Positions 46,437-63,710 of a stretch of 64,000 nt of DNA are shown in pieces. The position numbers and the translations under genes were made by a program. This stretch comes from an uncultured Bacteroidales bacterium. GTDB lineage: Bacteria > Bacteroidota > Bacteroidia > Bacteroidales > FEN-979. The stretch's first letter is position 1. Every line of letters starts with the position of its first letter. A model generated the notes under the pieces. That model was given only the letters and a program-made list of their open reading frames with translations, was not told the DNA's origin and searched no databases. The stretch covers positions 1-64,000 of the forward strand of contig CAIWTA010000046.1 of assembly GCA_903915465.1 (NCBI GenBank), written 5' to 3'.

Positions 46437-46511
46437 CGTTCTCAAGTAGGACGGGCCTTTTCACTACAACGCAGCAATGCCTGTAGCTGGCGCGCGTTTG
46501 TAACGCGTGCC
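46437..46511. repeat. Truncated copy of structured repeat plus GC hairpin
   Basis: TCACTACAACGCAGC at 46461-46475 matches the left arm of the structured repeat (TCACCACAACGCAGC at 46579-46593; TCACCCCAACGCAGC at 63472-63486), but no right arm follows. Instead a separate GC hairpin is present: GGCGCGCGTT (46489-46498) pairs with AACGCGTGCC (46502-46511) around a 3-base loop with one G-U. Lies between ubiE and the complete copy. Confidence 0.75.
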
Positions 46512-46560
46512 ATGATATTCATCTATTCCTTTATTAGTTTCTTCTAAATAATTTTTGCGC

Positions 46561-46670
46561 TCAAGCCGCGCCGCTTCATCACCACAACGCAGCTGCGCCT
46601 TCTTCTATCTCACTTCGTTCGATTTCCGGCTTCACCGGAACCGAAGAAGCCAAGGCTGCTAATGTGGTGA
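46561..46670. repeat. Structured repeat, copy B (stem-loops with conserved core)
   Basis: About 110 bases. Small stem AAGC/GCTT (46563-66, 46573-76). Outer stem TCACCACA/TGTGGTGA (46579-86, 46663-70), then GCAGC/GCTGC (46589-93, 46655-59), then CTTCTTC/GAAGAAG (46599-605, 46643-49), an unpaired 19-base core TATCTCACTTCGTTCGATT (46606-24), and end hairpin TTCCGG/CCGGAA (46624-29, 46635-40). Copy A at 63451-63564 has the same core but different, still pairing stems. Between ubiE and tsf. The rest of the gap 46512-46560 is AT-rich with nothing recognised. Confidence 0.85.
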
Positions 46671-46692
46671 CTGATAATCAAATCTCAAGAAT

Positions 46693-63371: not shown

Positions 63372-63450
63372 CATTATCTGCGAAACAACTATATAACTAA
63401 TTGGAAAAGATTAATAACCAAGCATCTACAATTCTTCTATTTACACATGC

Positions 63451-63564
63451 GCTCAGGCCGCGCGGGCCTCGTCACCCCAACGCAGCTGCGCCCAGTGCTA
63501 TCTCACTTCGTTCGATTCACGCCTTCGGCGTGACCGCACTGGTCAAGGCTGCTTATGTGGTGAC
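63451..63564. repeat. Structured repeat, copy A (stem-loops with conserved core)
   Basis: Small stem AGGCC/GGCCT (63455-59, 63465-69); outer stem GTCACC/GGTGAC (63471-76, 63559-64); GCAGC/GCTGC (63482-86, 63548-52); CCAGTGC/GCACTGG (63492-98, 63536-42); unpaired core TATCTCACTTCGTTCGATT (63499-63517); end hairpin TCACGCC/GGCGTGA (63517-23, 63527-33) with TTC loop. Compared with copy B (46561-46670), core and GCAGC are the same while three other stems differ but still pair. An open frame 63401-63709 across it looks spurious. Confidence 0.88.
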
Positions 63565-63710
63565 TGGTATTTTCTTTCGTTCTTTCTTTTGGTGGAAGCA
63601 AAAGAAAGTACAATTGACCAAAAAGTTATTATTCTTGATGTTCCTCTATTTTTCTATAGGTGGGCCACTCTGGGAGAAACTAAATACCGATTATATACCA
63701 ACAATCTAGC
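63565..63710 (+). repeat. 3' tail of structured repeat with perfect 10-bp hairpin
   Basis: CTTTCTTTTG (63582-63591) and CAAAAGAAAG (63599-63608) pair perfectly around a 7-base loop; then CAAAAAGTTATTATT (from 63639) and AGGTGGG..CACTCTG to about 63681, which recurs at 1-60. Copy B at 46.6 kb lacks this tail. So the whole element here may be about 260 bases. Confidence 0.75.

What the first reader, a model, noticed from the sequence alone, without database searches (positions are those of the whole stretch)
63451..63564. Structured repeat with paired, compensatory changes between two copies
Copies at 63451-63564 and 46561-46670 share an exact 19-base core and a GCAGC/GCTGC stem, but three other stems differ: CCAGTGC/GCACTGG versus CTTCTTC/GAAGAAG, TCACGCC/GGCGTGA versus TTCCGG/CCGGAA, AGGCC/GGCCT versus AAGC/GCTT. 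Both arms changed together, so pairing has been kept while sequence was lost. That is the mark of selection on structure (RNA, or folded single-stranded DNA), not of simple copying. The unpaired core, strictly kept, may be the recognised part. I know no named family with this core.
Basis: partly seen in the sequence, partly recalled or inferred. Interest (0 to 1): 0.87.

Follow-up and report, generated by a model that had tools for sequence, protein, structure and literature searches.

The report
Mobile structured repeat, pairing under selection
A short mobile piece of non-coding DNA, present in about 60 copies in this bacterium, keeps the same folded shape while its letters change, which means the fold itself is being preserved; it looks like an unusually elaborate member of the REP/MITE kind of bacterial repeats, with hints that it acts as RNA in the tails of messages.

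Summary
Both copies exist as described. The own genome holds about 57-70 copies; more occur in 14 of 60 relatives and 17 in Pontibacter vulgaris. On a structure-blind alignment of 45 copies with a tree-based null, 9 of 30 proposed pairs covary (E<0.05) against 1 of 2747 others. Both window copies are absent from the orthologous sites of relatives, so the unit is mobile. About 20 own copies ride in a MITE; the finding's copy is part of a longer composite repeat. Mismatch asymmetry, the tandem G.A form of the core and gene orientation favour the complementary strand as the one that folds. The core is a hairpin, not an unpaired, strictly kept recognition sequence. No Rfam, plasmid or viral match; no RAYT beside it. 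Best explanation: a REP/BIME- or MITE-like mobile structured repeat, probably acting as RNA in 3' UTRs and spacers, with ssDNA recognition by a transposase in trans the main rival. Its mobilising enzyme was not found. New variant of a known kind.

The parts
63448..63566 (-). structured unit, copy at 63 kb (finding); the folding strand is probably the minus strand
63374..63687 (.). approximate extent of the larger composite repeat that contains the unit; several contigs of the draft genome end inside it
63455..63469 (+). 5' hairpin AGGCC/GGCCT; overlapping alternative or pseudoknot pairing GCGC(63449-63452)/GCGC(63460-63463)
   Evidence: pair 0-10 of the test, E=0.002
63471..63479 (+). P1 5' arm GTCACCCCA (3' arm TGTGGTGAC, 63556-63564)
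63482..63486 (+). P2 5' arm GCAGC (3' arm GCTGC, 63548-63552)
63492..63498 (+). P3 5' arm CCAGTGC (3' arm GCACTGG, 63536-63542); CTTCTTC/GAAGAAG in the other copy
63498..63516 (-). 19-base core; on the minus strand a hairpin ATC-GA-AC-gaa-GT-GA-GAT with tandem G.A mismatches and a GAA loop
   Evidence: the tandem G.A reading is read off the sequence
63517..63533 (+). tip hairpin TCACGCC/GGCGTGA; TTCCGG/CCGGAA in the other copy
63579..63611 (.). next module: hairpin GTTCTTTCTTTTG/CAAAAGAAAGTAC, also repeated elsewhere and placed downstream of the unit in relatives
46559..46673 (-). second window copy of the structured unit
46605..46623 (-). 19-base core of the second copy
46489..46511 (+). neighbouring REP GGCGCGCGTTTGTAACGCGTGCC of the kind that flanks RAYT (Y1 transposase) genes in this genome; a separate element family
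46452..46475 (+). truncated 5' part of another unit (cgggcctttTCACTACAACGCAGC) fused to that REP
   Evidence: by eye

Best explanation
It is a mobile, non-coding, structured interspersed repeat of the REP/BIME- or MITE-like kind. The folding unit is about 118 nt and is often the first module of a longer composite. Shown here: many dispersed copies in intergenic places, absence of both window copies from orthologous sites in relatives, carriage of about 20 copies inside a TIR-bounded MITE, and preservation of helices P1-P3 by paired changes. How the unit moves when it is not in the MITE is not known.
For: Copies: 57-70 in the own genome, 14 of 60 relatives, 17 in Pontibacter vulgaris. Mobility: empty orthologous sites in G001-G004 for the 46-kb copy and in G002 and G004 for the 63-kb copy; MITEs with TIR AGAGACTGTTTAAAAATTTCA with and without the unit. 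Structure; in Pontibacter P1 reads GTCCTT/AAGGAC, GTTTTC/AAAAAC, GTTTCT/AGAAAC, GTCTTC/AAAGAC with 97 of 102 cells paired. Strand: in P1-P3, A.C mismatches on the plus strand (G.U or G.T on the minus strand) outnumber G.T by 47 to 14 independent origins, and make up 79% of such cells against 61% in shuffles. Between tandem genes the minus strand is the gene-sense strand 23 times against 7, p=0.005, in the same direction in three separate sets. REP RNA hairpins as attenuators and barriers to decay: PMC12306157.
Against: No transcript data. The 5' hairpin shows the opposite asymmetry (11 G.T against 4 A.C origins). The finding's own copy lies between tandem genes with the plus strand as gene sense. 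Part of the A.C excess follows from column composition. DNA folding of the minus strand is as significant as RNA folding. The enzyme that moves the unit was not found.
Confidence: 0.5

Rival explanations
1. The fold is selected as single-stranded DNA: the repeat is the recognition site of an enzyme acting in trans (HUH/Y1 or another ssDNA transposase), which mobilises it as RAYTs are thought to mobilise REPs.
For: Mobile, multi-copy, extragenic, hairpin-based; copies lie next to terminator and REP hairpins in T-rich DNA; stable minus-strand DNA fold (z -4.2 and -4.6); Y1 subclass 2.6 in Bacteroidetes is reported to be flanked by atypical secondary structures with copies elsewhere in the genome (PMC6006769).
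Against: No copy within about 1.5 kb of 34 Y1 loci in 13 genomes, including Pontibacter; the subclass-2.6-like Y1 gene of this genome is flanked by a different REP. The strand bias relative to genes is more naturally an RNA effect.
Confidence: 0.3
2. No selection on the fold: both arms change together because palindromes are corrected or swapped by template switching and recombination between hairpins.
For: Tips of some copies are replaced by other palindromic repeats (L131, L135); hairpins have been inserted into a loop (L046, L118).
Against: Between the two window copies P3 changes on both sides while the core lying between its arms is identical, so one swap cannot explain it. Covariation is spread over P1, P2 and P3 as single-pair changes in several genomes, and the inserted hairpins left P1 intact.
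Confidence: 0.12
3. A discrete small RNA gene or cis-regulatory RNA (riboswitch-like) with its own promoter, duplicated in the genome.
For: Pontibacter copies share an upstream TATACTTTGG box resembling a Bacteroidota -7 element (the resemblance is from memory); the structure is elaborate.
Against: Copies sit between convergent as well as tandem genes, and mostly with the gene-sense strand opposite to that box; the box is not shared by other genomes; both window copies are absent from orthologous sites.
Confidence: 0.06
4. Guide RNA or target site of an IS110/IS1111 element.
For: One unit lies just downstream of an IS110-type transposase gene in G002, and two units lie downstream of another in the own genome.
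Against: Nearly all units are unlinked to the three IS110-type genes of the own genome; in G002 the junction sequence resembles a CCTGCC/GGCAGG hairpin that is also inserted in units without IS110 (L046, L118); no RNA family hit.
Confidence: 0.02

Closest known systems
REP / BIME elements (RAYT-associated repetitive extragenic palindromes)
   Same: extragenic, multi-copy, hairpin-forming, mosaic with other hairpins, some copies next to terminators, sites where other elements insert
   Different: about 118 nt with a multi-tier stem and variable tip instead of a 14-40 nt hairpin; no GTAG tag; no RAYT beside it
CGTC-tagged palindromic repeats (PMC3733652)
   Same: the 5' hairpin is followed by CGTC
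   Different: those have 8-9 bp stems that begin with A-T pairs and a CCA-like tail; here the hairpin is 5 bp and is only the edge of a larger fold
MITEs
   Same: short, non-coding, mobile; about 20 own copies are physically inside a MITE with TIRs
   Different: no terminal inverted repeats were found for the unit itself, and it exists outside the MITE in this and other genomes
Atypical structures flanking Y1 subclass 2.6 genes in Bacteroidetes (PMC6006769)
   Same: phylum, and structures with copies elsewhere in the genome
   Different: the subclass-2.6-like gene here carries GGCGCGCG...CGCGTGCC repeats, not this unit

Membership tests
REP (as defined in PMC12306157) | extragenic and multi-copy | tested here: met
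REP (as defined in PMC12306157) | short single palindrome, about 14-40 nt | tested here: not met
   118-nt multi-helix fold
RAYT-associated REP | copies flank a Y1 transposase gene | tested here: not met
   no hit at 34 Y1 loci in 13 genomes
CGTC repeats | 8-9 bp stem with A-T in the first two positions, 4-5 nt loop, CGTC at one end | tested here: not met
   stem AGGCC/GGCCT of 5 bp compared with PMC3733652
MITE | terminal inverted repeats and target duplication | tested here: inconclusive
   met for the carrier element (TIR AGAGACTGTTTAAAAATTTCA, flanks TTA/TTA in L231 and L253), not found for the unit itself
MITE | related autonomous insertion sequence | not tested
   parent IS of the TIR not looked for beyond
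Rfam RNA families | covariance model match | tested here: not met
IS110 bridge RNA / seekRNA | encoded in the non-coding end of an IS110-type element | tested here: not met
Selected RNA or ssDNA structure | covariation beyond phylogeny | tested here: met
Functional RNA element | transcribed and folded in vivo | not testable with these tools
   no transcriptome data

The most novel reading that the evidence does not exclude
A class of mobile 3'-UTR RNA elements shared by Bacteroidales and Cytophagales: a conserved protein-binding base with a freely evolving tip, spread as DNA but selected as RNA on the strand that is sense to the host genes.
Probability: 0.3. Interest if true: 0.72.

Novelty: new variant of a known kind. 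Interest (0 to 1): 0.52.

Why it matters
Bacterial interspersed repeats are usually judged by sequence alone, and whether their hairpins are selected as RNA or as ssDNA is an open question. This family has enough diverged copies to show covariation with a tree-based null, and mismatch asymmetry and gene orientation give a handle on which strand folds. It could be tested in a named isolate, Pontibacter vulgaris.

Tried and rejected
Rfam at gathering threshold and at E up to 5: nothing relevant. Plasmids, phages (one 45-base hit to the downstream hairpin in an unannotated phage record) and viral contigs: nothing for the unit. RAYT link: Y1 genes in own and 12 other genomes, no unit beside them. 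IS110 link: looked real in G002 and C193, but better explained by a separate CCTGCC/GGCAGG hairpin or by distance. Phylum scan with model R2 and with the 21-mer: only marginal matches outside the family, so the unit is patchy. First covariation test with all 72 copies was weakened because the MITE-type copies pair P3 in another register; repeated without them. Exact insertion boundaries could not be read from the empty sites because intergenic DNA has diverged. A joint model with Pontibacter was not built because its P1 and P2 lengths throw the alignment out of register. Paper searches for a description of this repeat found none.

Full report
What was checked. The same core occurs 45 times in the draft genome with up to two mismatches and never in the reversed-pattern control. 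A covariance model built from 16 own copies finds 57 copies at E<=0.001 in the own genome (70 at E<=0.1) and further copies in 14 of 60 relatives from the genus, the family and one other family of the order.

Anatomy. Read on the plus strand, the unit runs from TGC[C/G]CTCAGGCC to GACTG: a 5' hairpin AGGCC/GGCCT, then P1 (GTCACCACA/TGTGGTGAC), P2 (GCAGC/GCTGC), P3 (for example CCAGTGC/GCACTGG) and two tip hairpins. A second pairing at the 5' end, GCCC/GGGC or GCGC/GCGC, overlaps the hairpin loop and may be a pseudoknot or an alternative fold. Across relatives the base is conserved while P3 and the tip change: the inner 13-36 nt differ from genome to genome. Two related units carry a foreign hairpin inserted exactly between P2 and P1 while P1 stays paired (L046, L118).

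Statistics. In 16 own copies 13 of 43 pairs have changes on both sides (shuffles 4.9; none of 500 reach it). In 27 copies from several genomes 17 of 28 pairs do, in 83 cells (shuffles 24; slid structures 10-24). Shuffles ignore ancestry, so I aligned the two halves without using structure, built a tree, and simulated columns independently along it with column-specific rates and frequencies. In 45 copies 9 of 30 proposed pairs reach E<0.05: two in P1, one in P2, five in P3 and one at the 5' end. Among 2747 other pairs one does, a register neighbour in P3. The test is an imitation of R-scape, not R-scape itself. With all 72 copies the signal is weaker because the MITE-type copies pair P3 in a shifted register.

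A distant cousin. A pattern scan of genome contigs found the 5' hairpin in Pontibacter vulgaris, a member of the phylum outside Bacteroidales. That genome has 17 copies with a similar base (CTCAGGCCGGGCGGCCTCGTC, CGCGCTG, CAAGGCGCTCAA, GACTGG) but different P1 sequences: GTCCTT/AAGGAC, GTTTTC/AAAAAC, GTTTCT/AGAAAC, GTCTTC/AAAGAC. 97 of 102 cells pair. The 21-mer and model R2 find almost nothing in 395 genomes drawn from the phylum, so the family is patchy.

Mobility. The orthologous spacers in the four genus mates lack the 46-kb copy, and those of G002 and G004 lack the 63-kb copy. About 20 own copies lie beside or inside inverted repeats AGAGACTGTTTAAAAATTTCA, forming MITEs of 159-464 bp; some MITEs lack the unit, so the MITE probably picked it up. 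The finding's copy lies in a composite repeat of about 63374-63687 in which several contigs end. In G003 and in some own MITE copies the unit is followed by a long stem with TGTTTGAG...GACGAGTTT and by a hairpin whose outer pairs also change together: GTCC/GGAC, GTAC/GTAC, GTTC/GAAC. Several copies follow an intrinsic terminator directly, and several follow a RAYT-type REP.

Which strand. In P1-P3, A.C mismatches on the plus strand, which are G.U or G.T wobbles on the minus strand, arose about 47 times against 14 for G.T (p=2.7e-5 against equality). Composition explains part of this: 79% observed against 61% in shuffles, none of 1000 as high. The core on the minus strand reads ATC-GA-AC-GAA-GT-GA-GAT, a hairpin with tandem G.A mismatches, which on the plus strand would be the poorer C.T and T.C; MITE copies have Watson-Crick pairs there. 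Among 30 copies between tandem genes the minus strand is gene-sense in 23 (p=0.005), with the same trend in own, related and Pontibacter sets (genes from a simple open-frame caller). The 5' hairpin shows the opposite asymmetry (11 to 4), and the finding's own copy is in the minority orientation. Together these favour RNA on the minus strand but do not settle RNA against ssDNA.

What it is not. No Rfam family. No match in plasmids or viral contigs, and only a short hit of the downstream hairpin in one phage record. Y1 transposase genes in 13 genomes have no unit within about 1.5 kb, and the REP-flanked ones I inspected in this genus carry repeats of another kind. IS110 neighbours exist in two places but are better explained otherwise.

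Verdict. The most likely nature is a mobile structured repeat of the REP/BIME- or MITE-like kind with an unusually elaborate fold. The function as RNA is inferred and the mobilising enzyme is unknown.

Noticed in passing
window 46489-46511; L035: RAYT-type REP GGCGCGCGTTTGTAACGCGTGCC; the same kind of repeat flanks a Y1 transposase gene (NHLH, YIHQNP, like subclass 2.6) on contig C93.
   Followed up: partly
L231, L232, L237, L244, L253: MITE family with TIR AGAGACTGTTTAAAAATTTCA, 159-464 bp, apparent TTA or TA target duplication; parent insertion sequence not identified.
   Followed up: partly
window 63579-63611; L131, L134, L125: Separate repeated hairpin CTTTCTTTTGGTGG..GCAAAAGAAAG whose outer pairs change together between copies; about 20 copies, many at contig ends.
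   Followed up: partly
L134, L133, L021: Long stem carrying TGTTTGAG..GACGAGTTT between the unit and the terminal hairpin; a similar motif (TGTTTGAGCGTTCAGCGAGTTT) follows the unit in Pontibacter.
   Followed up: no
L046 1501-1640, L118 about 1000-1150: CCTGCC/GGCAGG hairpin inserted in the loop between P2 and P1; the IS110-type gene of G002 (L099 290-1282) ends beside a similar sequence, so it may be that element's target.
   Followed up: partly
L047, L106: Units in which P2 is replaced by a separate hairpin ATCCCGAG..CTCGGGAT.
   Followed up: no
Pontibacter L141-L157: Spacers are mosaics of several short repeats (GACAGGTCGCGACCTGTC, CTATGAAACTATACTT and others) around the unit.
   Followed up: no
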